A DNA stretch of 64,000 nt from Termitomyces sp. T153 (taxonomy: Eukaryota; Basidiomycota; Agaricomycetes; Agaricales; Lyophyllaceae), in NCBI GenBank assembly GCA_018296165.2, contig JACKQL020000065.1:1-64000 (forward strand), written 5' to 3'. The translations under genes and the position numbers were made by a program. Positions within the stretch are counted from its first letter, which is position 1; each line of letters opens with the position of its first letter. The notes under the pieces are model-generated. The model was not told the DNA's origin. It made no database searches and saw nothing but the letters and a program-made list of their open reading frames with translations. Shown piece after piece: positions 6,305-56,140 of the stretch.

Positions 6305-7268
6305 TGTAGTACTGGGTTAGAGTAATACTGATAGTTCTGGGGCTTTCTTGAAGACTTAGGCAGTCTACTCCAATTCCACACTGATGTCTTGATGAATGCT
6401 TGAAGTTGAAGGGGTTTACTTCCAAAATATTTCTATTCTGAATGCAGAGGGGTCTCAACAAACTCCAGCCTAAGTGATTCACTCCCTGGGAACCACCGAG
6501 CCTTTGCCTATTAATTGCCTGTCCATTTACTACTCTACTTGGGCTTTTTATACCTCTTTCTACAGTGCACAGACCACCCCCTACATGTGACTTTTGGTTC
6601 CATACTTTCCAGCCCCTTATTCATAACTGTTATTCTAATTCCCCCTTTTGGCATGCCTGTTTCAGTGCCACAGGCCAGTTCCTGGTTCCATCATTCCTCC
6701 TTTGCATTCTTAGCTTCCATTTGCCCCATTTATCTCTCCCTCCTTTGTATTTCTCCCATTCATATTCTTCCCCATTCAGATTCTTTCCCATTCAGATTCT
6801 TCCATTCATCTGTTCCCTCCCATTCATTCCATTCATCTTCCTTTGTTCATTTCATATTCTTCCATTCATCTTCCTTTCCCTTCCCTTCATTCCATTCATT
6901 TCATATTCTTCCATTCATCTTCCTTTCCCTTCCCTTCATTCCATTCTTTCTCATTCATTCCCCTTTACCTCCTTTCAGTCAACATTCCAATCTGGTTATT
7001 CTTAGATCAGATCTAGATCTTGCCAGAATTGATGCCACTCAGGTGCTTTTGCCAGTCCCATGCTTCCCCTCTCATTACAGTGATTGGACTATTATTGAGT
7101 GTATAGTCTAGTATAGTCCTTGTTCTATCCTGTTCTGTCTTTCTTCTGGTGTATTTAAAGGGATAATGTTGCTGGGACTTGTTTTACCAGGAGGCTTACA
7201 GTTTTCAGCCTTAATAAATGTTTGTTTTGACTTCTAGTGTTTATTATGTTCCCAATGGTGTGACAACA
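6305..7268 (-). repeat. 5' LTR of Element I (about 964 bp)
   Basis: On the minus strand it begins TGTTGTCACACC and ends ACTACA, giving TG..CA ends with imperfect terminal inverted repeats. A TATAAAAAG box on the minus strand at 6544-6552 would start transcription toward gag. Positions 6760-6970 are a pyrimidine/purine-biased simple tract on the plus strand (repeats of CATTC and CTTCC), which generates long meaningless open frames. The partner LTR is outside the window, so target duplication and LTR age cannot be checked. Confidence 0.78.
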
Positions 7269-8374
7269 TTGTATCACTAGGTCTTGGTCTCTGTGCACCT
7301 TGTCACACTCCTGCTGGACCCTATTGCAGTCCCTCTCAATCCTCTAGACCTCCTTCTCATGTGACACCAGCAGTCAGATTAGTGCTCCTACTTGTTGCTG
7401 CTAGAACATCTCAGAAACTGTGGGATAAGGACCAATGGCCCCACTAAAATCCCCAACCAGGACTCTCATATCTGGAAAGTACACATGTGGCCCTGGAGGG
7501 CTTGCCATCAACTCCTCCCCCCAGGGTTATTTGCTAAGCCCCACCTCTGATGTGGGGGACACATGCCACATGCCCTTGTTGCATGCCATCAAGGCCCCCT
7601 CTCTCCATCCACCCCATGCAGGTCCCACCTTCATTGGAGACTGCCTTGCACCCTCTCCACCCTCCACTTCAGACCTCCAACCTGACACCTTGCCCTTATG
7701 CCCTTCAAGCAGTTGCTCCACCACCCATGCCACATCCCACTCCTGCTCCTCCAACATGCAAGCCACATGCCAACTCAGCAAGATTAGGCACTTCTCATAC
7801 CTTGTACAACAGGGAATGCACACTGAGGTGTCCTAGTGGGAGCCCTGCATCAGCTCCTTGATCTCACAGTGCTTCCTGTGGCAAGCACAAAGGGCACACT
7901 ATGAGATCAAATAGGTCAAGGCCCAACACAATGATGCTGGATACTTACTAGAGCTTCTACTTGACACCACTCCAGGGTCAGAGGACCTTGCACTCACACC
8001 ACTGCCTCTGCAAACTTCTCCAGGGTCACCTCTGCCTGGGCAACCTGCAACACCTTCAGAACCACCTGAATCTCCTCCAGACCACAATTAGGCCTCAAAG
8101 AATGCTTTGTCAATGCTGGGGCCAATGGTGCTGAAACCTTGCTCTGTAACAAAACCCCCAATGAGCCAGCCACCACTGCAGACAACTCTGTTAAGCTTGG
8201 TCAGCAGCTCCAGAATACAGAGAAAACACAACTGCACTCATGGCTACAGTACATAGCCTTTATGTGTTGGCAGCCACAATAGGAATCAGATTTCTTTAAG
8301 GAAGAGGGAGCAGGAGACATTGAGAGTGATGCAGATGATGCTGACAATGCTGAGGAGTAGGCAGAAGAAGACAT
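7269..8374 (-). pseudogene. Antisense accessory gene of family A, decayed copy
   Basis: Homologous to the spliced gene at 24990-26685. The ATG at 8372-8374 opens MSSSAYS, identical to the intact copy. Exon 1 retains the block AQAEVTLEKFAEAV. A 50-nt GTAAGT..ATAG intron (7899-7948) sits at the same place as intron 1 of the intact gene. Exon 2 keeps all six cysteines of the cluster, C-x2-C-x6-C-x15-C-x2-C-x6-C, and the following block YEKC...LSWHVAC. Stops are present, including TAG between the two cysteine groups. Homology continues to the Element I insertion, near the start of the coiled coil. It gives independent support for the gene's exon structure and the cysteine cluster. Confidence 0.85.
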
Positions 8375-14603: not shown

Positions 14604-15764
14604 TGTCAGGTTCTGCTGATTATAGGGGCTCAGCTACACTGGGCAAATCCTTACTAGGTGGATGTGATATCCTGCACTGATAACTGGGCATTTGGAGAAG
14701 GTCTAGACATTGGGGACTTGTGAAGATAAGCAACAGAGAGTGATTCAAATAAGTCTGAGGTGGTCTGGAGAGGTTTAAGATGAGTTGTGGAGAAAGAGTT
14801 GGATTTAATAGAATGTTAGGTACAAGTCTGGAAGCAAGTATTAGGGGTGCAGGGTAAACAGAGGCTATACAAGTGATGTGAGCAGGACCAGAGTTTGATG
14901 GGGGATCAATGGAAGTTGATGAGTTTTGGAGCCAAGCAAATAGTGAGGTCCAGAGTTAGTTCAAAGCATATTCAAGTTTGTAATTGTAAGTGCAGAGTTT
15001 GTAAAAGTGTTAGGGTTGAAAGGACTTAAATACAATAATGGAAATGGAGTCAAATGAGACAAGATGGAGTTGAGACAAGATTGAGACAATAATAAAAATA
15101 GATTCAAGCAGAGATACAAAATAATAACAAGAACAATAACAGAACTAGAGATGAGACAAGACTGGGAGACTGAGATAAGACTGGGAGACTGAGGAAAAAG
15201 GAAATGGGACATGGAATACAAAACACAAGACAGAAACAATCAGACCATAGGTAGTGTTAAGCAGGTAATATCAAGACTAGAGTATGAGGTGCTACTCTAC
15301 TACTTATATACTGACTACTAGAGAGCTCTGGGGGACAGCAGGTGTAGTGGTGGGACTTATTGGTACTATGCAGAGTCAATGGGTGTTGATTGTGATCAGG
15401 GGATGGGCTGCAGTCATATTCTGATGGGGTCAGTTGAGGATGTGGGCTGTCCTGGGTTTGTAGTGATGCTCTGGAGTTAGTTAGGCAAACTAGGGGATGA
15501 GTTTGTGATGCATGCCAGAGTCAGAAACAGTGAGGGAGGGTCCCAAAGGCTCAGGAGAGTCAGGAGAAGCATTGACAGCTGTGGGGAAGGTGTCAGAGTT
15601 AGCTAGGTGGCCATCAGAGTTTGCCAGGGAAGTGTTGGAGTTACCCAGAGTGGGTGACATGGATGGGCAAAGGTTGGGGAAGTTGAAGAGGGAGATGCAA
15701 GTGAACTCTGGGGAAGCAAGGTGGTTGCAAATGAGGTCCAGGGTTCTGGGACTGGGTTGTGACA
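14604..15764 (-). repeat. Solo family-A LTR with target duplication CACAC
   Basis: Starts TGTCAGGTTC and ends GGTTGTGACA on the plus strand, 1161 bp, flanked by CACAC at 14599-14603 and 15765-15769. Both edges match the family-A LTR. Internally it keeps the TATATAAG box (minus strand) and the adjoining TAATATCAAGACT block. No internal element sequence remains, so it is the product of LTR-LTR recombination. CpG-depleted, hence old. Confidence 0.92.
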
Positions 15765-22257: not shown

Positions 22258-22551
22258 GTGTGAGTTTTGTTGGATTCAAGCAAGAAATTGCTAACTTCTA
22301 TGAACTTCAGCACCTAATGTCTATAGCTGGACTATGTAGTATAGATATTCTTAATGGTTTACAAATGTAAGTGTGACAGTTTAAATAATTGGTTGGTTAG
22401 TACTAACTTTTATAATTTAATTTTCAGCATCTCTAATATATACCAGTGGACATTGTAGTATTTTGTTAATAATGTAATATAGATACATGATTGGTTTATA
22501 GATGAAATCTCAATGTATTGAATGGTAAGAGAAAAGCAACACTTGGTCAAC
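22258..22551. other. Non-coding 3' part of Helitron
   Basis: AT-rich. It contains an imperfect duplication of the gene's end: TGGTTTACAAATGTAAGTGTGA occurs around 22244 and again around 22354. No coding potential seen. Confidence 0.5.
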
Positions 22552-23073
22552 AAAATACAAAGACCTAACCAAACAAAGTGAGGTTGGGTCTAGGAATTAG
22601 CATTGAGTTTGAAATACAAGGACCTAACTGAATGAAGTGAGGTTGGGTCTGGGAATTAGCATTGAGTTTGAAATACAAAGACCTAACCAAATGAAGTGAG
22701 GTTGGGTCTGAGATGAAGCACTGAGTTAGAAATACAAGGACCTAACCAAACAAAGTGAGGTTGGGTCTGGGATGAAGCACTGAGTTAGAAATACAAGGAC
22801 CTAACCAAACAAAGTGAGGTTGGGTCTGGGACTTAGCACTGAGTTAGAAATACAAAGACCTAACTGAACGAAGTGAGGTTGGGTCTGGGATGAAGCACTG
22901 AGTTAGAAATACAAAGACCTAACCGAACGAAGTGAGGTTGGGGTCTGGGATGAAGCATTGAGTTAGAAATACAAAGACCTAACCAAACAAAGTGAGGTTG
23001 GGTCTGGGATGAAGCATTGAGTAGAATATCGAGGACCTAACCAAACGAAGTGAGGTTGGGTCTGGGATGAAGC
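22552..23073. repeat. Minisatellite of about 58 bp, nine units
   Basis: Nine tandem units at about 22562, 22621, 22679, 22738, 22797, 22856, 22915, 22974 and 23032, each holding GACCTAACC...GAGGTTGGGTC and then a spacer ending near TGAGTTAGAAATACAA. The two arms can pair into a 9-bp stem with one wobble, with an 11-nt loop. Units vary mainly at AACGAAG versus AACAAAG or AATGAAG, i.e. CpG decay of an ancestral CpG-bearing loop. Confidence 0.88.
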
Positions 23074-23105
23074 AAGAGCTACAGGCCCATGCTGAAGGCA
23101 CGGGG

Positions 23106-23777
23106 CGTAGCTCATTTTAAACAACATCAAGCTCATTCAGAGCTTAAGCTAGTGCTAGCTGCACTACAGAATTGCCAAGGACATCAGCGCCAATGTCCTC
23201 TGAAACTCCAGCTTTGTGAAGCTGCTGGAGCAGGTGAGCAAGCTGCTGGAACAGGTGAGCAAGCTGCTGGAGCAGGTGAGCAAGCTGCTCATCTGCAGCA
23301 GTCAAAGGCTCAGGCTCTCTTTGCTTTTTCCTTGCCCTTCTCCTTTGCAGAAAAGCATTGCTCAACTGTCTTCTAGGTGGTCAATAAGGAAGTGCTACTC
23401 TTCTGTGCCAGTGTGGGCAGCAACATTGCAGTTGCCTCACCCTTTTCTTTGCTAATCAAAGCAACCATTGGTTGCTCTGACACACTTGACAATGATGAAG
23501 GCATGTCTGACAGATGTGTCCCAGTAGGCAATGGCAGATATGACTACTGAGGAGGTGCCAACAACTGCATCAGAGCTGTGATTGACTCTGGGCCTTTGTC
23601 ATCCACCTCCATTGCATCTGATGACAATGTTGCAGGGACCAAGATCCCTACCTGTGATGACATAGTGGCAGGTTATTGTTTACCTGCCATGCCCATTGTA
23701 TGGCTAGGACCAGCCACTGGGGGTGGGGCCACAACAAACTGTAGCATCACAAACTGCTGGAACTCCTGGGACTACAC
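23106..23777 (-). pseudogene. Unrecognised accessory reading frame of Element IV, proximal part
   Basis: Minus-strand relic between Helitron and Element V, continuing at 34599-34987. Three copies of a 24-bp unit (about 23216-23300) encode an 8-residue Leu/Gln repeat (LLQQLAHL), a possible coiled coil. The rest is Pro/Ala/Val-rich with stops. No family recognised. Confidence 0.4.
23773..23777. other. Target-site duplication TACAC, left copy (Element V)
   Basis: TACAC immediately before the LTR start at 23778; the same five bases follow the other LTR at 34599-34603. Confidence 0.92.
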
Positions 23778-24775
23778 TGTCAGGTTCCGCTGACGACGGG
23801 GGCTCAGTACACTGGCGAGTCCTTACTAGGCGGACGCGATGTCCTGCGTTTATAACCAGGCGCCCGGGGTTGGAGCGGAGGTGGGGAAAGCTTGCGAGGG
23901 GTCCCTAGGGATAGCGGTCCGAGTAAGTCCTGAGTGATTCAGAGGGGTCTAAGACCGGAGGTACTGGTCGCTGACCCAGGGCGGGTGTCAGAGCTAGTTA
24001 GTGGGCGCACGAGGAGATTGCGGGGTAGGCAGAGGCTTCTCGGCTGTTGAGGGGCGGGGTCGGTTGGATAGGGGATTACCGGGGCGTGGTGGGTTCCGGG
24101 GGCGAGCGGGTAGCGAGGTCCGGAGTTGTCGTTAAGAATGTTCAGGTCGTGGCACATGCGCGGAGTTCGTACTGATGTAGGGAGCAAGGGAACTTCAGAG
24201 GAACAAAGGAAATATGTACAGTCGAGACGGGACGGAGACGAGACGAGACTGAGAAAAGATAGATTCGAAACCTAGAAACAGAAATACAGACGAGACGAGA
24301 GACGAAACATAGGAAACCGGTAAAATGTAATATCAAGACTAAGGTTTGAGGAGTTATTCTATGACTTATATACCAACTACTGGGTGCCTCCGAGGGCGGC
24401 GGATGTGATGGCGGGGGTCGACGGAGCTGTGCTGAGTCGACGGGTGTCGGGTACAATCCAAGGTCGGGCCGCGGCGGTATTCTGATGGGATCAGTTGGGG
24501 GCGCGGCCGCTCCGGGGACGTCGTGGCACTCCGGGACGGGTCAGGTGAACTAGGGTAGGGGGTCGGGGACGTATGACGTGGCCAGGAACAGTGGGGGAAG
24601 GTCTCAAGGGGGTGTTGATGGCTACGGATAGGGAGTTGCCATCGGGGTTTGCCGGAGAAGCGTCGGAGTTGCCCAGTGTGGGCGTCGAAAGTGTGGGCGG
24701 GGTTCCGGGGAGTTAGGCGGGAAATCGGGAGGGGTTGGGGGCCGTGTCTAGGGATCTAGGGAGCGGGTCGTGACA
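23778..24775 (-). repeat. 3' LTR of Element V
   Basis: 998 bp, plus strand TGTCAGGTTCCGC...GGGTCGTGACA. Contains the TATATAAG box (minus strand, 24365-24372) and the TAATATCAAGACT block (24328-24340). Near-identical to 33601-34598. Confidence 0.95.
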
Positions 24776-24989
24776 TCACCCCCCCTTCAGCATCGAGACC
24801 CTTGAGACGTGGGGAGCGAGTCGGGCATCGGTAGGGCGTGGGAATCGAAGTTGATCAATATTGATCAAACCGCAGCGAGCGGCGGCGGCGTGGGGAAGGA
24901 AGTCGAGGTGCGGCCGCCATTCATCAGGGGCCCCTTCTTGATTCATTAAAAAGGGGTGGACGCACCCAGGAGTCTGCCAGCTTGTTGCG
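24776..24989. promoter_or_regulatory. Polypurine tract and leader of the antisense gene
   Basis: On the minus strand GAAGGGGGGGTGA abuts the 3' LTR at 24775/24776: the plus-strand primer for reverse transcription. On the plus strand the rest precedes the antisense ATG. It holds TTGATCAATATTGATCAA, a palindromic block kept in Elements II and VII, and an AT-rich ATTAAAAAGG box about 40 bp before the ATG. Element VII has ATTTAAAG at a similar distance. This may be the antisense promoter. Confidence 0.65.
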
Positions 24990-26685
24990 ATGTCTTCTTC
25001 AGCTTATTCTCCCACAGCATCTAGGTCGCCGTCCCCGCCTTCCCAGCCGTCATCCTCCGAAGATTCAGAGGGTCGCCGAGATCGCTGTCGGGTCGAGGCG
25101 ATGTACCGTAGTCGTGAGTGCGGCCCGTTCTATGTATCCCAGAACACTGATTGTTCCCTCGCAGAGTTGTCCGCGGCCGTGGCTGGTCCCTCAGGGCCAC
25201 CGTCTGGTGCGGATGCGACGCAGCCCCTGGCGGGCGTGGTTACTTCTACGCGTTCCAAGCCTGGCATTCGCCCGGGGGTGGTTCGACTTGTTCCAGAGGG
25301 TTCGAGGGTGGTGCAGGCGGAGGTGACGCCGGAGCAGTTTGCCGAGGCGGTGGGTCGGGCGAGGGGTCCCCCCACCCTCGAGTGGTGTCAGGCGGCGGCC
25401 CCGGTGAGTGGCCACTTAGCTTCATGTCTCCCGGACCAACATGCCCTTGCAGTGTGCGTCTTGTACCCGACGAGGGGAGCAGTGTGAGTTTGAGGAACCG
25501 GCATCAGGGGTGCGGCGGGACACGTCGGTGTGCCTCCCGTGCCGTTCGCGGCACGAGAAGTGTTCCGTCACCCTGAGTTGGCGGGCCGTTTGCGTCGCGG
25601 CGGAGCAAGGGTGGGATCAGGGTTGGGTCGCAGCACAGCTGGAGGAGGGATGGAAGGGCAGGGTGTTGGGGAGGGGCTCCGGGGCTGGGGAAGGGGAATG
25701 GGTTAGCGCGTCTGTCATGAAGGTGGGTCCTCCGCGGGGTGGGCGGAAGGAGGGGGCCCCTTCCAGGCAGGAGAAGGGGAAACGGAGGGCGTCCCCTTCA
25801 CCCGAGGCGGGTCCCAGTAAGCGGGTGCGGGGCGAGCCGGTAATGGGGGGCCCCCCTGGTTCCGCGGTGTATTCCCCTACATCCGGAGTCCCCGTTGAGC
25901 AGTCCACGGACGGGTCGTGGTCGGTTGCGGAGGCCTATCTGCGGCGTCGGGTAGAGGGCTTGGAACGGTTGTTGGTCGCACGCGAGGGGGAGATTCAGGG
26001 GGTATGGGAGGAGAGGGACGGGGCTCGACAGGAGTTGGACGGGGTTCGGAGGGAACGGGACCTGGCGCGGAAGGACAAGGACGTCGCCGTCGGGACTGCC
26101 ACGGAGCGATTATCTCGTCTGCAGGAGTTGGAGGTGCGGACGGTGCATTTGCAGGCGCGGGCGGAAGCGGCGGAGGTGGCGGCGCAGCAGGCAGGGGGCC
26201 CAGGGGTGCGGGAGACTCAGCAGGGTTCCAGCGCTGGGGAAGTCCGGGCGGCGGCGGAGAGGGCGCGGCGGCGGGAGGAGTGGCTCGCCAACGAGGCGGC
26301 CTCGGGCCGGCGAGGAGTGCTTCGTGAGTGGTTTTCCCGCTTTCTTCTCCTAAGCGTTGACTCGGGTTCCACAGACTGGGCCCAGGAGCATCGCATCCTT
26401 CTCGACGGAGCGTCGGCAGCGCTGGGGTCCATCCACGATGGGTTGGCGAGGATGCCCGGGGACCTTCCGCCGGAGTTGGGTCAAGGGGTAACGCAGATGG
26501 GGCGTCTGTTGGCAGGGCATCGGCGGAGGGCGACGGCAGACCCCGGGGCGTGGTGGGAGATAGCGACGGACGTGGGGGAACCGCTCCCCGGGCAACCCGA
26601 GGTTCTGGCGGCGGTAGTGGCACAGTTGGAGGTGTTCATGGTGGGAAGGGTAGCGGGGTTAGGGTCGGAGGAGGAGGGAGGGTGA
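24990..26685 (+). CDS. Antisense accessory protein with Zn2Cys6-like cluster and coiled coil
   Basis: Spliced gene opposite to gag-pol. Exon 1 is 24990-25403, intron 1 25404-25452 (49 nt, GTGAGT..GCAG), exon 2 25453-26323, intron 2 26324-26374 (51 nt, GTGAGT..ACAG), exon 3 26375-26685; about 531 aa. Exon 1 is Ser/Pro-rich, then has AEVTPEQFAEAVG. Exon 2 opens with C-x2-C-x6-C-x15-C-x2-C-x6-C, close to the fungal Zn2Cys6 DNA-binding pattern but with a longer central loop. It continues with a basic patch (GPSKRVRG), then a long charged coiled coil (about 25920-26170). Exon 3 is a conserved domain (EHRILLDGASAAL, AGHRRRA, WWEIA). Intron 1 is conserved in the decayed copy at 7269-8374 and intron 2 in Element VII. 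I infer a nuclear DNA-binding regulator; no direct proof. Confidence 0.8.
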
Positions 26686-26915: not shown

Positions 26916-29900
26916 TCAGTCCCGGGGGTTCCGGGGCTTGGCGGGATTCCGTCGGTGGAAGTCCCGGATTTCATCGGGGGCTCTGTCGAGGTTCCTTCGG
27001 GGCTCCCACGTATCGTCCTCAGGCCTGTAGCCCTTCCAGCGGACCAAGTACTGGAGTCGGCCGCGAACTACCCGGGAGTCGAGGATCTTGTCGACCTCGT
27101 AGTGGTACTCGTCCTCGACTTCAACGGGGGGCGGTCGGCTGGGGCGTTGGCCGGGGAAGGGGTCTGGAGCGTGCCTTTCAAGGAGTCGAATGTGGAACAC
27201 AGGGTGGAGGCCCTTCAGACCCAGAGGCAGGTCGAGCTTGTAAGCGTGGGTGGAGACCTTCCGGAGGATCTTGAATGGGCCGAGGCGTTTGTGGTCGAGT
27301 TTGATAGAGGGCCTCCGGGTCTTAAGATTTCGTCGGTCGAGCCAGACCAAGGTGCCGGGGGGCCAGTCGGGGGTCGGCTGGCAGCGGGCGTCGGCGTGCT
27401 TGGAGTAGGCTTGGTTGGCGGTGTCGATCTCATCCCGGAGGAATTGGTGGAGGGACCGGAGGTCCTCGGCAACTTCGTGGGCAACGTGGGAGGGGATGTC
27501 TTTGAGGGACAGCGTGAGTCGGGGATTGTAGCCCTTGTTGGCGTAAAAGGGGGAAACTCCGGTGGCGGAATGAGGCGTGTTGTTGTAGGTGAATTCAGCG
27601 AGGGGGAGCTCCGCGCGCCAGTCGTTCTGTAAATAGTTAACGTAGAGGCGAAGATACTGTTCTAACGTCTGGTTTACGCGCTCGGTTTGCCTGTCGGTTT
27701 CCGGGTGGTAGGCGGTAGAGAGGCTGGTCTTGATCTCGAGTGCCTTGCACAGCGATTGCCAGAAATGAGACACGAATAGGGGCCCACGGTCGGAGATGAT
27801 GTCATTGGGAAGTCCGTGTTTGGAGAATACGTGTTCTAGAAATAGTTTGGTGAAATCCAGGGCGGTGTCGGTGGTGTGGCAGGGAATAAAGAGGGCCTGC
27901 TTGGTAAGGCGGCAGACGACGACAAGGATTGCGTCGAAACCTTCGGAATCGGGGAGTTCAACGATATGATCCATCGATATTGAAGACCAGGGGCGGCGAC
28001 CAACGGGGAGGGGTTTCAGTAATTCGTGGGGGCGATGGCGGGGGACTTTAGCCCGTAGGCAGGGCTCACAGGCCCTCACGTATCGCGTGACGTCCTTCTT
28101 CATTCCTGGCCAAAAATAAGTCTGGGAGATGAGTTGAAGGGTCTTACGAATTCCTGGGTGCCCCCGGAGTTTGTGATCGTGGTGCTGCCGGAGTATGTCG
28201 AGGCAAATGGACTTGTGGTCCGGGGCGTAGATTCGTCCACTTCGGAGCAGCAGGCGGTGGTCCGGGGATAGCGAAAAGGGGTTGTCTACGCTCGACTTGT
28301 CGGGATTGTTGCGGGGGTCGTGCTGGTTGAAGAAGGGGTCCGGGGGTGAATTCCTGATTTGCTGGAGGATTCCTTCTTCGTTTAAAATCAGCACGGCATG
28401 TAGATGTTCGGGTGGGATTACCACTCGATGGTTGAATGCATTTCATTTGGTTTCGAACGATTTCTTCGGATACACGTTGGGTCTTCGAGTGAGGGCGTCG
28501 GGCTTTGCGCCGAGTCGCCCGGGGCGGTAGTGAATGGTAAAATTGTACTCCGAAAGGGTTTCGGACCATCGAGCCTGGCGGCGGCTGAGCTGTTTTGTGG
28601 TCGTGAAATATTGCAGGTTGTTGTGATCGGAGTAGACTTGGATGCGGTGCGGGGACCCCTCGAGGTAGGCCCGCCACTGATGGAAGGCTTCAACGATCAC
28701 GAGGAGCTCCTTGTCGTAAATGTCGTAGTTGAGTTCCGCTGGGATCATTGATCGGGTGTAGAAGGCGACGGGGCGGAGATCCTTGCCCTCCGAGTTCGAC
28801 TGGGAGAGTATCCTGGCGATAGCGTAGTCGGAGGCGTCACATTCGAGCACGATCAGTAGGGAGGGATCGAAATGGCGGAGGACCGGAGCGGAGGTGAAGG
28901 CCTTCTTCAGGAGGAGGAATACGCTCTGGCACTTGCTGTCCCAATCCCAAGGGGTGTCCTTCCTTGTGAGCCAGTTGAGGGGCTTGGTAATTCCGGAGTA
29001 GTTGTCGATGAAGCGGCGATAGAAGTTAGCAAACCCCAAGAATGACTGTACCTCCTTGACGTTCTGCGAGGAGGGCCAGTTGAGTATCGCGTCGACCTTG
29101 GCGGGATCCATGCGCACACCGTCGGGGGTGACGATGACCCCGAGATATTCGACTTCCGCTGTGTGGAATGAGCACTTTTCGGGTTTAGCATGAAGGTGAT
29201 ACTCTCGGAGCCGTTCCAGGACACGGCGGACGTGCTCTGAATGCTCCGCCGGCGAATTTGAGTAGATCAGGATATCGTCCAAATACACAATGACAAAGAC
29301 GTCGTTCATGTCGTGGAAGATGTTGTTCATGAAGTACTGGAAGGTGGCGGGGGAGTTAGTCATTCCGAAGGGCATTACGAGATACTCAAAGAGGCCGTAG
29401 CAGGTGCGAAAGGCGGTCTTCCATTCATGCCCCGGGGCGATCCAGACGTTGTTGTAGCCGGAACGAAGGTTGATTTTTGTGTAAATCTTGGCGTTGCGAA
29501 GGCGATCAACAAGGTCTCCGATTAAGGGGAGGGGGTACCGGTTCTTCTTGGTGACTTTGTTGAGTCCCCGATAATCCACACAGAGTCGGAGGGATCCGTC
29601 TTTTTTCTTGGCGAACAGAACCGGGGCGCCAGCCGCAGAGATCGAGGGACATATGAAACCTTTGCCGAGCATGTCATCGAGGTATTCCTTCAGGGCCCGG
29701 AGCTCGATTTCGGACATGTTGTAGATCTTGCCAAACGGGGGTGAGGTGCCTTCTTCAAGGTCGATCTGGTGGTCGTAGGAGCGGTGCGGAGGGAGTTCCT
29801 TGGCACTTCCTTCGGAGAACACGTCAGCGAATTCATGATACTCCGGGGGAACTACTTCGGATAGGATCTGTTCCTCCGTCTTCCTTTCTGGCGTGATAGT

Positions 29901-31088
29901 CCCTGTGCAGAGGTATTTCTCCGGTAGGGCTGGCGTGACTTGCAACTGGAAGGCGGGGGTGCCTTCTTGTAGGAGGCGCGCGAAGGGGACGGCGCCGATG
30001 ATTTTAATGTCGAGGTTTCCGGAGTCGACGGGGTTGGGTCCCGTAGATGTAGCAGTCGGATCCGGGGTGGCGTCGGGGTCTGGGATAGGCTGGAAGCGGA
30101 GGTGGATGGCAGCTGCTAAGCTTGCTTCGGGGCCGGGGAATTGCATGGTAAGGTTCTTCCAGTTGATGTCGGGGTTGACGTCTTGCAGCCACGGGAGTCT
30201 GAGCACGATTGGGGTCGACGGGGGTAGTTGGGTAACGAGGAGTCGGGCCTGAAACTGCAGGTCGTTATCGAGGGTGAGGGTGTTGTCGTGGTACTGCGTG
30301 ATTCTTGTCGTGGCAGGGCTCCCATCGAAGAGTTGGAGCTCGAGGGGTTTGTCGAGGTCGTTGCGTCGGAGGTCGAGTTGGTTGCTGACAAAGACACCGG
30401 AGGCGCCGCTGTCTACGAGGGCGGGGAGTTCCTTGAGCGAGCCGCCAAGTCGGACATAGATGACGAACGATCGCGCAGATCTAGAGCGAAGTTGCGGCGG
30501 GGTCCGGGGTTGGTTGATCGTGGCCTCGGAGCTCTCGGAGGGGGGTGGGACATGGAAGGGTACCAGTCCGGAATCGGCGGGGTTGTCCCGGTCGAGGCGT
30601 AGGGTGAGACTGGGCCAATTGACGCGGGGATTGGTGGAGCGGAGCCATGAGAACCCTAAGACGATGGGGGCGGAGGGGTGTAATTTTGTGATGAGTAGCC
30701 GGAGTTCTTGCTGTTGTCCGTCGGCGAAGGTCAGGGTCATTTCTAGGCAATGAGTGATGTCTCCCGCTGGGGTAGAGTCTCCGTCAAAGAGTTTGAGGGG
30801 GATCGGGGCGGGGAGACGGCGGAGGGATTGTGGGGCGAGCGCTGCCAGGGATTCGTCAACAAAGTTATCGGTGGCACTGCTGTCGACTAGTGTGGGGACG
30901 GGTTTGTCGGTGAAGGGGAGAGTGGTGCGGAGGAGGAGGTTTGTGGAGGAGTGGGAGGGGAGGTGTGCCGGGGGGTTGTCCAGGGCGAGCATCATTGCGC
31001 GGAGAAGTGTGGCTGGGGCGGAGAAGACGTCGGGATGTGGTCCGCGGTCTAGTGCGTCTTCCAGACCTAAACCGCCGACTCGTTTTCC
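26916..31088 (-). pseudogene. pol: Pol of Element V (two protease-like domains, RT, RNase H, integrase, chromodomain)
   Basis: Single frame interrupted by TGA at 28443-28445 (consistent with CGA). N-terminus: a protease-like domain with TLVDSSATDNF (about 30870-30890), then a second with ALVDSGASGVF (about 30393-30420). RT has YRGLNKVTKKNRYPLP, YTKINLRSGY and YLDDILIYS; the first catalytic aspartate appears as Asn (29469-29471). RNase H has ECDASDYA, YDKELL and YSDHNNL. Integrase has HGHPG...[20 protein letters not shown] and NQTLEQY. The tail [25 protein letters not shown]...DDTWEP is a chromodomain. The frame is -1 to gag and overlaps its end, with GGAAAAC at 31082-31088 as a possible slip site. 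Confidence 0.92.
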
Positions 31089-33568
31089 GTGAACTGGTAG
31101 TTACAGTCTTCTCTGTCGATCGTCCACACGGCGCGTCCCATTACCTGTCGTTTAGGGCAACTGCAAATAAAATGTCCCTGCTCACCACATAGGATGCACG
31201 CGCCCTCCTTCCGTCGTTTCTCCTGCGTTTCTTCCGGCACGTCGATCCACTGACTGTCCTGGATCCTGTTTGCGCATAGGGCTTCCTGATCGTCGGCGGG
31301 GTCCGGGATGTCGTCGCGATCGTCGGGATTGGTATCCGGAGGTACTGGGGTGTTGTGGAGGTCGGCGGCGTTGAGCTGGGCGGGTGGTCGCTGCCCCGGG
31401 GGCCGATTAGCGTTGGGGACTCCTCGGCCCGGGGGAAAGCGGGGTGCAGGGTTAGCAGGGTTAGCGGGGATGGAGGGTCGGATGCCATTGGTTGCTCCGG
31501 CCTGCCAGTTGGTGTTACCGGAGGTATTCCACGAGGTCCGGGGCGCCGTGTTTTTGCTGCGATCTTCCCAATAACGTTGGTCGACCTGGGTAACAAGCGC
31601 CTTGTACCCGTCGTAGGTGGTTTGTTTGGGCGCGAGGCGAAGGACGTCCTTGATCCGTTGGGGCAGGGCACGACAGAGGGCGAACCGGAGGGCGTTGTAA
31701 TTCCAGCCGGTCTTGTAGGCCTCTCGCTCGAATCGTACGATGAAGGTTGTGAAGCGTTCATTGTCGCGCATTCAGAGGTTGAAGAGATTTTCCTCCGCCT
31801 CTGCTACGGTGTCAAAGACGCCAAACTTACTCGAGAACTCTTGAGTGAAAGCGAGCCAATGGGAGAGTACGGGATTGTTTGGGTCGAACCGGAGTAGCGC
31901 GGTGTAGTGGTCGAAGGCGATGCCCTGTAAGTATGATGCGGCGAAGGCTACTCGTGAGCTCTCAAGCTGAAAAGTGATGGGCTTAGCTTGAAACATAGTT
32001 AAACACTGGGTCAGGAAGATTCGCCACTTCCGGGGGTCGCGGCCGGTGAAGGGTTCGGGCTTCTGGATGTCGAGCTTTCCTTCCCGGGCCAGTGCGTCGC
32101 GGGTGTCATCCTGCGAATTTTGAGTTCAGGGTGGGGGTCCAGCGTTGTAGTAGTAGTAGTAGTTGTTTCCGTTTCCGCGCTGGGGGGGAAAATTGTCCAT
32201 CGCCGGGCCCCCCGGTCCGCCATTGGGTGGTCCCCCACCGGGGTTTTGACCTACACTACCCGGGGCGGGTCCTGGGGCCCATCGAGGGGGAGAGGGTCCT
32301 CCGGGATTCGGGGGTCCGAAATAGTTGATGTCGTTGGGGGGGTTAGGCATCGGGGTGGGCGGGGGACGAAAGGGGTTGGCGGACAGAGGGGGTCGGGGCG
32401 CCCCGGGGCCCAGGGGCTGTCGCGGGGGGACTGGGGCGTTGGGACGGGGCGGAGGGGCGTTGCTACGAGGGGCGCGGAGGTCGAAATGGGGGGGTCGGTC
32501 TCGTTGGGGCCCGTTGCGCGGGGGGTGTTCGTCGACGGGGTTGCCCGGCTCGTCGATATAGGAGAGGGTCCGGTTGTCGTCGTCGACGCGTAGGGACGGT
32601 CGTTGGGAGCGGATTTCGGGGATGGCGGGTTGATCCCAGGTTCGGAAGGCGCTGGGCACCGAGCTGGCCCGGGGCCGGGCGGAGAGGGCCAGGGTGTGGG
32701 CGGCGGGTTGGTCGAACAGCCCCCCCGCGGGGTTGAGATTCCTCAAGATGCTGGAGGCCGCGTTGAGTTCTTCCTGCTGGCGGGGAACGGAAGATGGGGC
32801 TTTGTTTCGTGTCCCGACGGGTTCCTCGCGTTGCACGTGGAAGGAGCGGGCGGGGTCCAGGGGGTCTTCGAAGGGGCGGGGGTTCGGGCTAGTGTGGATT
32901 TCTTCGACCAAGGTGCGGAGCTCGTTCCGTAAGTTCTCGTCGAGGCCCAGGGTGCCTTGCGTATTCTCCGGGAGGTTCCCTTGCAGGTAGCGTTCGTGGA
33001 AGTCGAGGAGTCGGTCCGCCCAGACCTCCGGGGTTGCGGAGGTGTTGGGGTAGCCTAGGCTGGTAAGGAAGGTGCAGGTACGCCTTGCGAATTCCGCAGG
33101 GGACAGGCGGAGGAAGCGGAGAACTTCGTCGCGTTGCTGGGCGTAGGCTTCGATCCTCTGCTGCCTGGGGGAAGGAGGGGTTTGAACGGCGAATGGTGGG
33201 CGGGGTGGGGAATAGTTATCCGTAGCTTCCGGAGGGGCTGGGGCTGCAGCGGGGATTGGATACGCATAGTAATGGGCGGGGGGAAGGTAGGCGGGGTTGG
33301 GGGGTGCTGCGGAGTATCCTCCAGGGTTGATACGGGGGTTGTTGCCATCGGCGTGGAATGCGGGAGGGCGGCGCCAGCCCGGGGGTATTCCCTGGCTGAT
33401 GGAGGGGGCGTAGAACACCTGGTTGGGGTCAGGGGTCCAGTGACGGGGCACATATTGGTCCGCGAAGGGGCCCGGGTAGAATGGGGCGTAGGAATTTTCC
33501 AATATGGGCTGGCCGTAGGCGTCGGTTGGGTAACCGACTGGGTTGTACGCGGGGTTAAACGCAGACAT
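31067..33568 (-). pseudogene. gag: Gag of Element V
   Basis: ATG at 33566-33568 (MSAFNPAYN). One frame, broken by TGA at 32126-32128 and 31772-31774. Both stops fit CGA to TGA, since conserved gag sequence continues in frame beyond each (LAREGKLDIQKPEPFTGRD after the first, MRDNERFTTFIVRFEREAY after the second). The N-terminal 480 codons are Pro/Asn/Tyr-rich. The capsid-like part is at about 32090-31400. One zinc knuckle, CILCGEQGHFICSC, lies near 31150-31200. It ends at TAG 31067. Confidence 0.9.
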
Positions 33569-33587
33569 CGAGAACGGGGTAAGGGGG

Positions 33588-33600
33588 AGTCTTGATATTA
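33588..33600 (-). other. Self-primer binding site of Element V
   Basis: Directly adjoining the 5' LTR the minus strand reads TAATATCAAGACT, not a TGG-type tRNA site. Its exact reverse complement lies in the LTR at 34151-34163 (AGTCTTGATATTA in sense), at the predicted RNA 5' end. This is the arrangement known for the Tf1/sushi self-priming group. Confidence 0.8.
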
Positions 33601-34598
33601 TGTCAGGTTCCGCTGACGACGGGGGCTCAGTACACTGGCGAGTCCTTACTAGGCGGACGCAATGTCCTGCGTTTATAACCAGGCGCCCGGGGTTGGAGCG
33701 GAGGTGGGGAAAGCTTGCGAGGGGTCCCTAGGGATAGCGGTCCGAGTAAGTCCTGAGTGATTCAGAGGGGTCTAAGACCGGAGGTACTGGTCGCTGACCC
33801 AGGGCGGGTGTCAGAGCTAGTTAGTGGGCGCACGAGGAGATTGCGGGGTAGGCGGAGGCTTCTCGGCTGTTGAGGGGCGGGGTCGGTTGGATAGGGGATT
33901 ACCGGGGCTTGGTGGGTTCCGGGGGCGAGCGGGTAGCGAGGTCCGGAGTTGTCGTTAAGAATGTTCAGGTCGTGGCACGTGCGCGGAGTTCGTACTGATG
34001 TAGGGAGCAAGGGAACTTCAGAGGAACAAAGGAAATATGTACAGTCGAGACGGGACGGAGACAAGACGAGACTGAGAAAAGATAGATTCGAAACCTAGAA
34101 ACAGAAATACAGACGAGACGAGAGACGAAACATAGGAAACCGGTAAAATGTAATATCAAGACTAAGGTTTGAGGAGTTATTCTATGACTTATATACCAAC
34201 TACTGGGTGCCTCCGAGGGCGGCGGATGTGATGGCGGGGGTCGACGGAGCTGTGCTGAGTCGACGGGTGTCAGGTACAATCCAAGGTCGGGCCGCGGCGG
34301 TATTCTGATGGGATCAGTTGGGGGCGCGGCCGCTCCGGGGACGTCGTGGCACTCCGGGACGGGTCAGGTGAACTAGGGTAGGGGGTCGGGGACGTATGAC
34401 GTGGCCAGGAATAGTGGGGGAAGGTCTCAAGGGGGTGTTGATGGCTACGGATAGGGAGTTGCCATCGGGGTTTGCCGGAGAAGCGTCGGAGTTGCCCAGT
34501 GTGGGCGTCGAAAGTGTGGGCGGGGTTCCGGGGAGTTAGGCGGGAAATCGGGAGGGGTTGGGGGCCGTGTCTAGGGATCTAGGGAGCGGGTCGTGACA
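33601..34598 (-). repeat. 5' LTR of Element V
   Basis: 998 bp. The sense strand starts TGTCACGACC and ends AACCTGACA. TACAC follows at 34599-34603, completing the target duplication. Differences from 23778-24775 seen by eye include CGCAATG for CGCGATG, GGCGGA for GGCAGA and AGACAAG for AGACGAG, mostly at CpG. Confidence 0.95.
34151..34195 (-). promoter_or_regulatory. TATA box, predicted start site and self-primer of Element V
   Basis: The sense TATATAAG occupies 34195-34188. Exactly 32 nt after its first base comes AGTCTTGATATTA (34163-34151), complementary to the primer-binding site at 33588-33600. The 32-nt spacing is kept in Element VII (51469 to 51437) and in the solo LTR at 60291-61470, so the complementary segment should be the first bases of the RNA. 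Confidence 0.78.
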
Positions 34599-34987
34599 TA
34601 CACTGGTTGTGCAGCCACAGGGTATCCAAAGTTAAACTGAGGGGGGGCTGGTGGTTTCCCATATCCTTTTGCTGCTCCTTGAGGGGGGGCCAATAGTTCC
34701 CCATGCCCTCTGCCTGCTCTGCCTCATTGAGGGGGCAGCCCATGTCCCCTTGCTAGCAACTGCTGCATTGCCACTGTGTAGCTCAGTGGAGCTACATTTC
34801 CTGGCACCACTGGTGGTCCTCCACTCATGGGCCTTGTGTCCCTTTGAGTTGGGGCTACTCTTCTTGTAGGTGCTATGTCTCCCAGCACCAAGCCTCCTGC
34901 CAATGCAGTGAAGCCTCCAAAGCCAGGGAGCAAACTACTCCCTGACTCTCCCCCTCTTAAGCTCTGTCCAGAGCTCAACAAATATTC
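34599..34987 (-). pseudogene. Element IV segment just downstream of integrase
   Basis: Minus-strand Gly/Pro/Ala-rich sequence beyond the broken end of integrase. It reads in frame past the TGA (GDTT then EYLLSSGQSL), where related gypsy proteins have Trp after GDTT, so the stop is probably TGG to TGA. It continues into the accessory frame at 23106-23777 once Element V is removed. Function unrecognised. Confidence 0.45.
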
Positions 34988-36504
34988 TCAAGTGGTGTCC
35001 CCAAGACTCCAGCAAACCTCAAACTTGAGGTTCTTACCATCCCAACAATGACCTACTAAGTCATTGATGAACCATTCCTGGTTGTCTGGGGCACCAAAGT
35101 TGTAAGGCTCTGGTGTTGCCCTGTTGGGGAATAAGGCATTGTTGCTGGCCTTATATGGGCACAGCAGCAACACATGGAACTTAGGATGTATCCTTTGTTC
35201 ATGGAGTGCCATAGGCAACTTCAATATATAGTTGGAAGTCTCACTATAGGCCTCCAAAATCTTATACAGCCCAACCCACTTAGGGCAGAGTTTCTTTGCT
35301 CTGCCTTTAGGTAGGTTGAGATTTTTTGTTGAAAGGTACACCAATGCACCTTTCTCTAGTTCAGGGTCAGGCCTGCAACATGAATTGGCCAGATGCAACT
35401 GAGAAACACATGCCTCTATAATTATGTCATGTGCCATTGCCAAGTTCTCTAGAGCTTGGCAGGCAAACTGCTGGATTCCCTTTGGAATTACAGTATCTGC
35501 CCTGATTTCCTGTATCATAGATGGCATGTACCCACTGTTCAACTTAAACAGTCCAAACTGCATTGTCTTAGAAATACTTGCATTTATCATGAACTCTATT
35601 AAGTCTATTTGACTTAACCAGTCTTTTTGGTCTGGTTGTACTACCATATGCAGGATCTGACCATTGGTCTGTGGGTGAAACAATGTAGACATCAGGGGCT
35701 TTGCTCCTAACAACTTATGTAGTTCATACCACCATTTTGATGTGAACTTTGAGTTTTGATCACTGATAACTGAGCTTAGGAGGCCATGTAGCCTCACAAC
35801 CTTGTGCATGTAAATCCAGGGCAGCTGTGAAGCTGTCATAGTAGTGTGCACCAGAATAAGGTGTACTATGCTTGTCATCCAACATGTAACTATCCACAGG
35901 TAGTTATACTCTTTTGATTCAGGAAATGGACCAGTAAAGTCCATCTCTATCAAATCCCAGGGTCTAACTGGCACAGGCAGGGAATGTAACTTCCCTGAAG
36001 GGAGCTGATTGCTCTCTTTTGCCTGCTGGCACAGCTGATAAGTGGTACAGAACATGCATATGTCTGCAACCACTATCAGCCACCAATACCAACAACAAAT
36101 GTACTATGTTGTTTTCTGGGCACAAAAATGCCCTATTACATTGTGTGCTTGCTTGACTCTCAATCACAAGGTATACAAAGTACCTCATGGCCCAAGATGT
36201 TGGTAGTCCAGATCAACTTATCCTGGAGGCAGAAGGACTTATAGTCCTTTGGTTGAGTCATGATTTCAGCAAAGAGCTTGTCTTTGCTGTACAGGGATTG
36301 GATATGATGGAGGAATTCCCTGTCTGTCCTATCTTGGGGTTGGGGAGACTGGGCCATCCCTAGGATAGCTTCTCCCAGAGACATATTGATTTTGTCCTCC
36401 TTAATATCAGACCCATGTTGAGCTTGTGCTGAAGCTCCCTTGCTGTCATTACTGGTGGCTAGTATGTGTGCTTCCTCATCACAAATTTTGTGACAATTGC
36501 ACAC
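34988..36504 (-). pseudogene. Integrase of Element IV
   Basis: Long minus-strand frame with the integrase core: IEMDFTGPFPESKEYNYLWIV, VISDQNSKFTSKWW (related proteins have SDRDSKF) and STLFHPQTNGQ. Then PDPELEKGALVYLSTKNLNLPKGRAKKLCPKWVGLYKILEAY, a GPY/F-like region, and a WSLGDTT tail. Upstream (36160-36504) is the degenerate zinc-binding region. Arg-to-Cys/His/Gln replacements fit CpG decay. Nonfunctional. Confidence 0.85.
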
Positions 36505-47168: not shown

Positions 47169-48299
47169 ATGTCTTCCCCCAGCGTTCCAGTGGTTTCTCC
47201 CGCCGATTTAGACGAGGTGGTGGTGTATGACAGTGGGGGTGAGGAGTTCGAGCGTCGGCGCCGGGGTAGCGTTAGGGACCGGAGTCGTAAGTGTTGTCGA
47301 ATTTTCCTTTCGGGATGGTTGACGGGGTTCCGGTAGAGTCGTCCGTAGTAGTAGTGGTGGACTTTCCGGGGGTTCCGAAGCGGACCAAGTTTCGTCCCGC
47401 AGTGCCAAAGGGGAAGGGGGCGTCTTCGGTGGTGGTTCGGGGAAAGCGTCGAGCTTCCCCACCCTCGGGGGCGGGACCCAGCAAGAGGCCGCGTGGGCGC
47501 GAGTTGTCGGCGGGGCCTCCCGAGTCTTCCCTCTTTTCCCCTGTCCCTGGCGTTCCCTCGGAGCGGTCGTCGAGTCCCTCCGCGCCGATTCCTTCAATCA
47601 CGGAGGTCTTCCTTCGCAAGCAGGTGGAGGCCCTGACGACGTCGTTGGCAGTACGGGAGGGGGAGCTCCGCCGGGCGAGGGAGGATCGTGACGCGGCGCG
47701 GACGGAGAAGGAAGCGATGGAGCGGGAGAGGAATACTTCGGTGCGCGTGGCGACGGAGCGGGCGCTAGAGGTGCGGGGTCTGCGGGAGCGTTTGGCGCAG
47801 GTGGAGGGGCAACCCGCGGGGGAAGCGGAGGGGCGGGGACGAGTTCCGGAGGGGGATGCGTTGTGGGCGGAGCTGGAGGCGGCGAGGCGGAGGGAGGATT
47901 GGTTGGCCAACGAGGCCGCCTCGGGTCGCGCGGGGATTCTTCGTGAGTTGTCTCCCGTTCCTTCGTTCGTTATTGACGGTTCATTTTCGGAGTTTAGGCT
48001 GGGTGCGGGAGCATCGGGTCCTCTTGGACGGTGCCTCCGCGGCGTTCGCGTCGATTCAGGACGGGTTGACGCAGGGGTCCGCGGTCCAGCCTCCGGAGTT
48101 GCAGCAGGGAATGGCGCGGTTGGAGAGGTTGCTGGCGGGGCATCGGCGACGCAATGCGGTGGCCCCGGGGTCGTGGTGGGAGGTGGCGGCCGATGCGGGG
48201 GAGGCATTGCCGGGGTTGGCGGAGATCCTAGCGGTGGTGCGGGCCCAGATGGAGGTCGACCTGGGGGTTGGGCTTCCGGGAGGTCCGGGGAGGGAGTGA
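47169..48299 (+). CDS. Antisense accessory protein, finger-less form
   Basis: Exon 1 is 47169-47286, intron 47287-47336 (50 nt, GTAAGT..GTAG), exon 2 47337-47942, intron 47943-47997 (55 nt, GTGAGT..TTAG), exon 3 47998-48299; about 341 aa with no stop. Compared with 24990-26685 the cysteine cluster and AEVTPEQFAEAV block are absent, while the basic patch (GPSKRPRG), coiled coil (EVFLRKQVEAL through RGLRERLAQVE), EDWLANEAASGR and the exon 3 domain (WVREHRVLLDGASAAF, AGHRRRN, WWEVAADAGEALPG) remain. The last intron is at the same codon and phase as intron 2 of Element V. Possibly a shortened or antagonistic version; that is inference. Confidence 0.78.
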
Positions 48300-54747: not shown

Positions 54748-55827
54748 TGATGAGCCCCAGTTGTTGCTGAGCACCAGTTGTCACTGAGCACTATTTTTTG
54801 GCATTTCAGACTTAGCAGCAGCTGACTATTTAAATTTGGCACAAGTCACAACACTCAGCATGTAGGGCCTAGCCCAAGGTCTGGACTGAGGTAGCCTTAG
54901 CATGGGACTTTAGCATGTGGAGCCTAGAACTTGGGCCTAGATCAGCAAGGCCTAGATCCTTCCTAGCAATGATTATTAGTGACTCTAGTGACTCTGGTGA
55001 CAAAACAGCTTTCTCTTGCCATATATGAGCATATTGCCAGATGTGTACCTTGTGCTATTATTCCCCTTGTTGAATTTGACCAACATACTTGAATGGCATC
55101 TACACTTCAGAGACTTTGCTTATAGTTTTTTACCTAGTTACAGACTGATGCCTTGTATGAACCATAAATACATTGACAGATGCTGTCACTAGTGGTGACT
55201 ATTTGCTTACTTTCCCATACTATACTTTGGAACCATATAAATACTGCCTGTACATAGACACTTGGACAAGCAAATCAAATTGACTAAATCCCCCTTGAAC
55301 CATATTTATCTATCTCTAAGCTTACCAGCTTGAGATTTCACTTTGCCTCTATCTTCACTCTAGTCCCTTACCTGCCATTGACTTTGACTTAGCAACAAAC
55401 CTTATCAACCTTGACTTTGATCTAGTGTGGTGCCAACTAAGAGCACCCTTTGTGTTATCTTGACTTAGCAATGTTAGCAACTGTGGCTAACAACTAGTTT
55501 ACATTCATGCTCCTGATTCTGTCTCCCTATTTCCCCTTTTCTATTACATTCCCTCACTTCCCTACCACTGTTTAAAGTTCACTCTTGTCTTAGCAATGTG
55601 TTCTTGCCTTCACCTATTCCCCTTTCTGTCACTAGTGATCTAGGCTAGTGATAGCGATCCTTCCAACTTCACCTTACAACACAACATTTGCTCTTATTCT
55701 CTGAGACAGTTACTGACTTGCCCTCAACTATTAAATTCCTACTGCCAGCTATCCTATCTAGTGACTCATGTTAGGTTCTCTCTTTTTAGGCTTCCTGCAT
55801 GGCACTAGGTGGCATAGGAGTGCATCA
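54748..55827 (+). repeat. 3' LTR of Element VI (family B)
   Basis: TGATGAGCCCC...GTGCATCA, 1080 bp, preceded by the purine tract GGGAGGA at 54741-54747. The TATAAATA box on the plus strand near 55235 gives plus orientation, so the gene at 52543-54573 is antisense. The 5' LTR is not in the window. Confidence 0.82.
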
Positions 55828-56140
55828 GTGGCTTGTCAACAAGGCAGCCTCAGTGTGGAGGGGAGTGATGTATCAGTTTTACTTTTTTCTGCTCCAGCCC
55901 TACTACATGATCTTGTAGACTGAATCTGTGAGCACAGGATCCTCCTTGATGGGGCAACTGCTGCCTTTATGTTGATCCAGGATGGGCTGGTACAGATGCC
56001 CAGAGATCATCCAGCAGAGTTTAGCATGGCATAGGCTAAATAGGGAGGGTGTTGATGGGGCACAGGCAAAAAAATGTGGCAGCACTAATAATTTTGGTCC
56101 CAAGGGTTCCAGATTGATGGGGGCAAGCATTGTAGTAGTG
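55828..56140 (+). pseudogene. Antisense accessory gene fragment, Element VIII
   Basis: Starts at CTTGTCAACAAGGCAGCCTC, matching the WLANEAAS codons of Elements V and VII, and includes the intron region and then CATAGGATCCTCCTTGATGG-like sequence matching EHRVLLDGASAAF and IQDGL. Stops and frameshifts throughout. The Element VI LTR abuts it. Confidence 0.7.

What the first reader, a model, noticed from the sequence alone, without database searches (positions are those of the whole stretch)
24990..26685. Spliced antisense gene with a Zn2Cys6-like cluster carried inside a chromovirus
Between pol and the 3' LTR, on the opposite strand, is a three-exon gene of about 531 codons. It encodes C-x2-C-x6-C-x15-C-x2-C-x6-C, a basic patch, a coiled coil and a conserved C-terminal domain. 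A decayed copy (7269-8374) keeps intron 1 and all six cysteines, and Element VII keeps the last intron at the same phase. Introns on this strand make it a true antisense gene, since they would be lost if it were copied from a transcript of its own strand. The domain order resembles a transcription factor, so the element may carry its own regulator.
Basis: partly seen in the sequence, partly recalled or inferred. Interest (0 to 1): 0.86.

Follow-up and report, generated by a model that had tools for sequence, protein, structure and literature searches.

The report
Mushroom jumping genes' selected antisense gene
In a Termitomyces-like mushroom genome, copies of an LTR retrotransposon carry, on the strand opposite their own genes, a selected protein-coding gene with predicted introns, kept even by shorter relatives that lack the copying enzymes, so its product likely works as a nuclear regulator of the elements that carry it.

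Summary
The antisense gene is real and under selection. It has four predicted exons (514 codons), not three (531): a 51-nt in-phase intron (25114-25164) was missed. It lies between pol and the 3' LTR of a chromodomain Ty3/Gypsy element; 46 of the 50 best-scoring RT loci have it within 6 kb downstream on the opposite strand. Between families, transversions favour third codon positions (0.21/0.15/0.28), most strongly over the six-cysteine module; of six frames in exon 3 this one is the most constrained and alone lacks stops.

It carries a shorter antisense gene without the cysteine module; at least 150 places match it, and 13 copies read show the same codon signature (one sense frame there cannot be told apart by wobble alone).

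The six-cysteine spacing is exact in distant relatives, but Pfam Zn_clus stays below cut-off and its halves match in swapped order. A basic patch, a long helix and an upstream motif ~130 bp before the ATG suggest a nuclear regulator of the element's own family; this is inferred. Antisense genes at this position are known (Grande, Retand, Boty brtn).

The parts
23778..24775 (-). 3' LTR of family-A element (998 nt; TSD TACAC at 23773-23777 and 34599-34603)
   Evidence: 7 differences from the 5' LTR
24776..24989 (+). leader between LTR edge and the antisense ATG; likely antisense promoter
   Evidence: mean identity to family B 0.80, 0.70, 0.67, 0.62 in the 50-nt steps from 24776 to 24975; function inferred
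24851..24868 (+). TTGATCAATATTGATCAA, perfect 18-bp palindrome; its part AATATTGATCAA also precedes the genes of C and D and of 27 of 30 B copies
   Evidence: 4 matches in the window vs 0.47 expected; 128-133 nt before the ATG in A, C, D
24946..24952 (+). TTAAAAA, TATA-like box; TTAAAA in the leader of 28 of 30 B copies
   Evidence: function inferred
24990..25113 (+). exon 1 of the antisense gene
   Evidence: donor GT in 37 of 38 family-A copies
25165..25403 (+). exon 2
25404..25452 (+). intron b (49 nt)
25453..26323 (+). exon 3 (cysteine module, basic patch, long helix)
25453..25563 (+). C-x2-C-x6-C-x15-C-x2-C-x6-C module
   Evidence: stretch 25453-25680 is the most constrained of the five tested (0-fold/4-fold transversion ratio 0.25)
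25774..25830 (+). KGKRRASPSPEAGPSKRVR, bipartite NLS-like basic patch
   Evidence: several of its columns are invariant or nearly so; NLS reading is inferred
25906..26196 (+). long helix, likely coiled coil
   Evidence: P0001 273-369; pLDDT above 90 over 281-360, about 80 at the ends
26230..26660 (+). conserved C-terminal helical part (crosses intron c)
   Evidence: P0001 381-506
26324..26374 (+). intron c (51 nt)
26375..26685 (+). exon 4 with stop TGA 26683-26685
26916..31100 (-). pol: protease, RT, RNase H, integrase, chromodomain; one in-frame stop at 28443-28445 in this copy
32126..33727 (-). gag-position open frame
   Evidence: no Pfam match
33601..34598 (-). 5' LTR of family-A element
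47169..48299 (+). family-C antisense gene without the cysteine module: exons 47169-47286, 47337-47942, 47998-48299 (stop included); 341 codons
47039..47050 (+). AATATTGATCAA, 130 nt before the family-C ATG
7182..8374 (-). decayed antisense gene (D) with six cysteines and introns a and b recognisable; motif at 8491-8502
55823..56022 (+). fragment of the C-terminal part

Best explanation
This is a protein-coding antisense gene of a Termitomyces-like chromovirus family, kept under purifying selection with its predicted introns, and its product likely enters the nucleus and regulates transcription or silencing of the elements that carry it. Shown by sequence: position, antisense orientation, codon-level selection, conserved splice signals, and presence in a pol-bearing family (A) and two pol-less ones (B, C). 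Inferred steps: the gene is transcribed from its own leader (conserved AATATTGATCAA and a TTAAAA box); the mRNA is spliced; the protein is imported by the bipartite basic patch, dimerises by the long helix and, in families A and B, touches DNA by the six-cysteine module; it acts on its own family. Reason for the last step: gag and pol can be supplied in trans and are missing in B and C, while this gene is not, so its benefit must fall mainly on the copy or family that encodes it. The loss of CpG sites in old copies fits a host that methylates these elements, so countering silencing is a fitting target.
For: Codon-position constraint A vs B: transversions 0.214/0.151/0.284, introns 0.248; 0-fold/4-fold ratio 0.48 overall and 0.25 in the cysteine region; in exon 3, 0.44 in the annotated frame, 0.64-1.55 in the other five, all of which hold stops. 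Within family A, non-CpG transition columns 24/19/66 by codon position, p=5.6e-9, introns faster still. Within family C, shared transversion columns 0/1/7 (p=0.0026) and non-CpG transitions 34/14/64 (p=2e-7). No pol in C: none by tblastn or in five open frames by Pfam, and 40 of 40 scored copies of its 5' segment lie 2.6-2.9 kb from the gene. No pol match in 0 of 30 B loci just past the gene, nor between the LTRs of the two B copies read at length. Exact cysteine spacing in 44 of 123 homologues found, including P0116, which is 36% identical to P0090. Columns of the basic patch invariant or nearly so; long helix confident. Upstream motif 128-133 nt before the ATG in three elements of the window.
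Against: No expression, localisation or DNA-binding data. Zn_clus is below its cut-off, and only 9 of 39 relatives match it even at E up to 1. Family C spreads without the module, so DNA contact by it cannot be the gene's general role. The cysteine region has low AlphaFold confidence, and Foldseek gave no match below E 0.001. Within A, transversion columns alone are 10/7/16 (p=0.051) and shared ones 4/4/5 (p=0.45). Copies within B show no codon signal in transversions (0.0285/0.0290/0.0290), so selection in B after its spread is not shown; B vs C alone is not significant (p 0.21-0.28). In C a sense-strand frame in the mirrored register is also open and scores almost alike (0.19/0.37 against 0.18/0.25); in A the mirrored frame scores alike too but holds 4 stops. 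The intron c donor is broken in 5 of 12 C copies fetched. A pol-bearing sister of C with the short gene is not excluded.
Confidence: 0.53

Rival explanations
1. The protein is a structural or integration accessory: it joins the particle or pre-integration complex and helps nuclear import or target choice, without regulating transcription.
For: Basic patch, long helix and conserved helical C-terminal part; family C does without the cysteine module.
Against: Such a factor could act in trans like gag-pol, so its retention by C without pol is harder to explain; a separate conserved leader is odd for a particle part.
Confidence: 0.2
2. The product mainly limits its own element (copy-number control or latency), as HBZ does for HTLV-1; the short family-C version is a dominant-negative partner that escapes or blocks the full-length protein.
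For: Family C keeps the long helix and C-terminal part but lacks the cysteine module, and looks the youngest of the families seen: 19 of 150 scored copies, the window's included, are identical over 178 aa. HBZ precedent read in passages of PMC10186651.
Against: No interaction data; selection on the C gene does not tell activator from repressor.
Confidence: 0.2
3. The antisense RNA itself is the functional product (repression or small RNAs), and the reading frame is incidental.
For: Non-coding antisense transcripts are known in LTR elements (PMC7264820, two of three parts read).
Against: Constraint follows codon positions, and in exon 3 of A vs B only the annotated frame is both constrained and open; introns change faster than first and second positions.
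Confidence: 0.04
4. A host gene captured once and now passive cargo, or a separate transposon nested in the element.
For: Three predicted introns and a transcription-factor-like order.
Against: Three protein searches list relatives only from Termitomyces (two of them scored only the ~8000 candidates sharing most words); same position and intron phase in at least three families; purifying selection inside TE families.
Confidence: 0.05

Closest known systems
Boty/BcGypsy1 of Botrytis cinerea with antisense gene brtn (Zhao et al. 2011; seen only as cited in PMC8365987 and PMC7264820)
   Same: Fungal LTR element with an extra gene antisense to gag-pol, listed in the review among those between pol and 3' LTR
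   Different: No introns, cysteine module or pol-less relatives in the passages seen; homology to brtn not tested, its sequence was not at hand
Plant Retand elements with antisense TRP28 ORFs (PMC11963269, passages)
   Same: [quoted passage not shown] predicted DNA binding; some carriers non-autonomous; regulatory role proposed
   Different: Non-chromovirus plant lineage; the word intron does not occur in its main text; PF04195 not matched here
Maize Grande gene23 (in PMC7264820)
   Same: Antisense accessory gene with own promoter and a nuclear product
   Different: Plant element; sequence relation not tested
HTLV-1 HBZ (PMC10186651, passages)
   Same: Spliced antisense gene at the 3' end of a retroelement; nuclear regulator with a dimerising helix
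   Different: bZIP, promoter in the 3' LTR; here no bZIP match, and the conserved motif lies between LTR and ATG and not in the LTRs
Arabidopsis VANDAL VANC anti-silencing proteins (PMC5735166, passages)
   Same: Works-like candidate: element-encoded protein that frees its own family from silencing through short motifs
   Different: A different kind of transposon (recalled: MULE-type DNA element); sequence relation not tested; our motif stands once or twice per leader, not in arrays
Fungal Zn2Cys6 transcription factors (PF00172)
   Same: Six cysteines with permitted spacing, basic patch and likely coiled coil downstream
   Different: Below the Pfam cut-off; first triplet matches the second half of the profile, second triplet the first half

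Membership tests
Chromovirus (Ty3/Gypsy with chromodomain) | RT, RNase H, integrase and C-terminal chromodomain between LTRs with target duplication | tested here: met
   (PF00078, PF17917, PF17921, PF00665, PF00385); LTRs and TSD TACAC
Antisense additional ORF between pol and 3' LTR (aORF-3R) | antisense, between pol and 3' LTR | tested here: met
Antisense additional ORF between pol and 3' LTR (aORF-3R) | present in most copies of the family | tested here: met
   97 of 150 scored RT places within 6 kb on the opposite strand (1 on the same strand), 46 of the best 50; the gene list holds 135 places only, so a lower bound
Antisense additional ORF between pol and 3' LTR (aORF-3R) | transcribed from its own promoter | tested here: inconclusive
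   conserved leader motif and TATA-like box; no RNA data
Retand TRP28 (PF04195) | TRP28 domain | tested here: not met
   Pfam scan at E up to 10 lists only Zn_clus
Zn2Cys6 (PF00172) | six cysteines C-x2-C-x6-C-x(5-16)-C-x2-C-x(6-8)-C (range recalled) | tested here: met
Zn2Cys6 (PF00172) | profile score above curated cut-off | tested here: not met
   18.4 vs 21 bits; 14.9-19.7 for the pieces that matched
Zn2Cys6 (PF00172) | canonical order of the two cysteine halves | tested here: inconclusive
   first triplet matches about profile 13-35 in pieces from three families, second triplet profile 2-14 in P0001 (11.1 bits); second-triplet pieces alone gave no Zn_clus match
Zn2Cys6 (PF00172) | binds two zinc ions and DNA | not testable with these tools
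   needs protein
HBZ-like antisense bZIP | bZIP domain | tested here: not met
   no bZIP family listed
HBZ-like antisense bZIP | spliced antisense transcript | not testable with these tools
   splice signals only
Non-autonomous LTR element (family C) | LTR pair and TSD without pol | tested here: met
VANC anti-silencing | family-specific loss of methylation | not testable with these tools
   no methylation data

The most novel reading that the evidence does not exclude
A retrotransposon lineage threw away pol but kept, under selection, a spliced antisense gene as its only recognisable protein: a parasite of a parasite whose private possession is a nuclear factor that keeps its own family switched on against host silencing. 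The long form holds a zinc cluster with its two halves in swapped order; the short form has lost it and takes over or blocks the long form through the shared coiled coil.
Probability: 0.28. Interest if true: 0.9.

Novelty: new variant of a known kind. Interest (0 to 1): 0.73.

Why it matters
Antisense genes at the 3' end of LTR retrotransposons have been noted in plants and in a fungus, with function unknown (PMC7264820). Here families with well over a hundred matching places each give codon-level evidence of selection, and pol-less carriers separate this gene's benefit from that of gag-pol. That makes the open question, what such genes do for the element, directly testable in a mushroom. It also illustrates the one orientation in which a retroelement can keep introns for good.

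Tried and rejected

Selection of rows: the 8 family-A copies and the 12 C copies were all chosen because their listed segment had no stop (one A copy and four C copies proved broken elsewhere). This favours intact frames, but should not by itself put transversions on third positions. L053 and L059 were dropped for poor alignment; one search kept them.

Full report
Where it is. The element runs on the minus strand from 34598 to 23778, with 998-nt LTRs that differ at 7 sites and a TACAC target duplication. Its pol holds RT, RNase H, integrase and a chromodomain. One in-frame stop (28443-28445) interrupts pol in this copy; other copies have a 1394-codon open frame there.

The gene. It is left out of the J132 gene model (P0001), contains a stop in D, and its counterpart in C is 50 nt long, so that retention would break the frame. 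The gene therefore has four predicted exons and 514 codons. Of the 30 best-scoring copies, 24 are open to the stop. Over 38 A copies, the donor GT is kept in 37 (intron a), 38 (b) and 34 (c); the broken donors are G to A after a C, as CpG decay would give. In family B the most frequent donors and acceptors at all three places are again GT and AG. In the 12 C copies fetched, donors are GT in 10 (intron a) and 7 (intron c), and acceptors TAG in all 12.

Is it a gene or a chance frame? Between A and 30 B copies, transversions per site are 0.214, 0.151 and 0.284 at codon positions 1, 2, 3 and 0.248 in introns. The six single pairs printed give p of 8.6e-7 to 8.5e-5. The ratio at 0-fold to 4-fold sites is 0.48 over the gene and 0.25 in the cysteine region (0.34 and 0.12 after correction). 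In exon 3 the annotated frame gives 0.44; the other five give 0.64 to 1.55 and contain stops. Among B copies, which decay after insertion, the three positions are equal (0.0285/0.0290/0.0290): a built-in neutral control, and also a sign that selection within B is not shown. Within A, transition columns that never involve a CpG are 24/19/66, with introns (0.219) above third positions (0.128) and well above first and second (0.042); transversion columns alone are too few (10/7/16, p=0.051; shared 4/4/5, p=0.45).

Carriers without pol. Between them I found no pol by tblastn with the family-A pol, nor any Pfam family in five open frames in and near it; of the family-A gag only a weak match to its first 90 residues remains. 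Its antisense gene has three exons and 341 codons, and lacks the cysteine module and intron b. At least 150 places score in the genome, 19 of them (window included) identical over 178 residues; 13 copies were read. For the 40 best copies of its 5' segment, the gene lies 2.6 to 2.9 kb away in all 40, leaving no room for pol. Of 83 C genes, one has a listed RT within 7 kb, at 6.1 kb; of 30 B genes none (the RT list holds the best 150 of 2302 candidates, so a distant helper could be missed). None of 30 B loci shows pol just past the gene, and two B copies read over 9.5 kb have none between their LTRs. Among 13 C copies, transversions are 0.0027/0.0027/0.0145 with introns at 0.0225, shared transversion columns are 0/1/7, and non-CpG transitions 34/14/64. 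Second positions slower than first in the antisense frame, the clear homology to the A and B proteins and the faster introns favour the antisense reading. So a family without pol most likely kept this gene working.

What the protein looks like. The cysteine spacing C-x2-C-x6-C-x15-C-x2-C-x6-C is exact in 44 of 123 proteins found; among 50 that span the region it is exact in 35, and the other 15 are mostly gene models that skip part of it. It is exact in P0116 of strain T32, 36% identical to P0090. Pfam Zn_clus falls short of its cut-off (18.4 vs 21). The first triplet alone matches about positions 13-35 of the 39-position profile in pieces from three families, and the second triplet matches 2-14 in P0001 (weak). 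This suggests the two halves stand in swapped order; it is a lead, not proof. The basic patch KGKRRASPSPEAGPSKRVR holds several of the invariant columns and reads as a bipartite NLS (inference). AlphaFold2 gives a confident 97-residue helix and a helical C-terminal part, but low confidence for the cysteine region. No known fold was matched with confidence.

Control region. AATATTGATCAA occurs four times in the window against 0.47 expected: before the gene in A (twice, as an 18-bp palindrome), C and D, 128 to 133 nt before each ATG, and not in the LTRs. It stands in the leader of 27 of 30 B copies and of 27 of 38 A rows; the 8 A rows fetched start after it. A TTAAAA box stands about 40 nt before the ATG in A and in 28 of 30 B copies. 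I infer an antisense promoter there; the same stretch may also serve the sense strand next to the polypurine tract.

How it most likely works. An antisense-transcribed, spliced mRNA yields a nuclear, dimeric protein that acts on the family's own control regions. Enzymes can be borrowed; a benefit that is retained when the enzymes are lost must fall on the carrier. Old copies have lost their CpGs (D leader CpG ratio 0.00 against 0.95 and 1.17 in the A and C leaders), which fits methylation by the host, so countering silencing is the role I rank first, with repression or rivalry between forms second. Nothing here tests either.

What is known. [quoted passage not shown] PMC8365987 and PMC11963269, passages). 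HBZ is a well-studied spliced antisense regulator of a retrovirus (PMC10186651, passages). Against these, new here are the predicted spliceosomal introns conserved across families, the zinc-cluster-like module, and codon-level selection inside a pol-less family. My searches for such a case in print listed none in the library held, which lacks most subscription papers.

Noticed in passing
28443-28445: pol of the window copy is split by one in-frame stop, while other family-A copies have a 1394-codon open frame; observed only.
   Followed up: no
contig starts of G000 (C10, C109, C112, C181, C241, C289, C306; C32, C39, C52, C85, C98, C256, C284): Several contigs begin near a family-A or family-C element with the gene at nearly the same offset (about 1.6-1.7 kb or 3.9-4.0 kb), so the assembly seems to break at these repeats and copy counts are lower bounds.
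   Followed up: no
22494-23083: Tandem array with a 59-bp period, eight overlapping copies reported, just outside the family-A element.
   Followed up: no
35162-38059: Remains of another Gypsy-like pol, about 30% identical to the family-A pol.
   Followed up: no
L077 353-2244 and 2245-9501: A family-B element lies directly beside a stretch 79% identical to the family-A pol region, as if inserted into an A-like element; only one side was read.
   Followed up: partly
60413-61473 and 14604-15654: LTR-like stretches 68-84% alike to family-B or family-C LTRs: further families of this group.
   Followed up: no
47272-48384, minus strand: A 370-codon sense-strand open frame lies exactly opposite the family-C antisense gene; in register it shares the wobble positions, so it may be a shadow of the selected frame.
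   Followed up: partly
P0098 (Termitomyces T112): A gene model containing the short, cysteine-less form, so family C is not confined to this genome.
   Followed up: no
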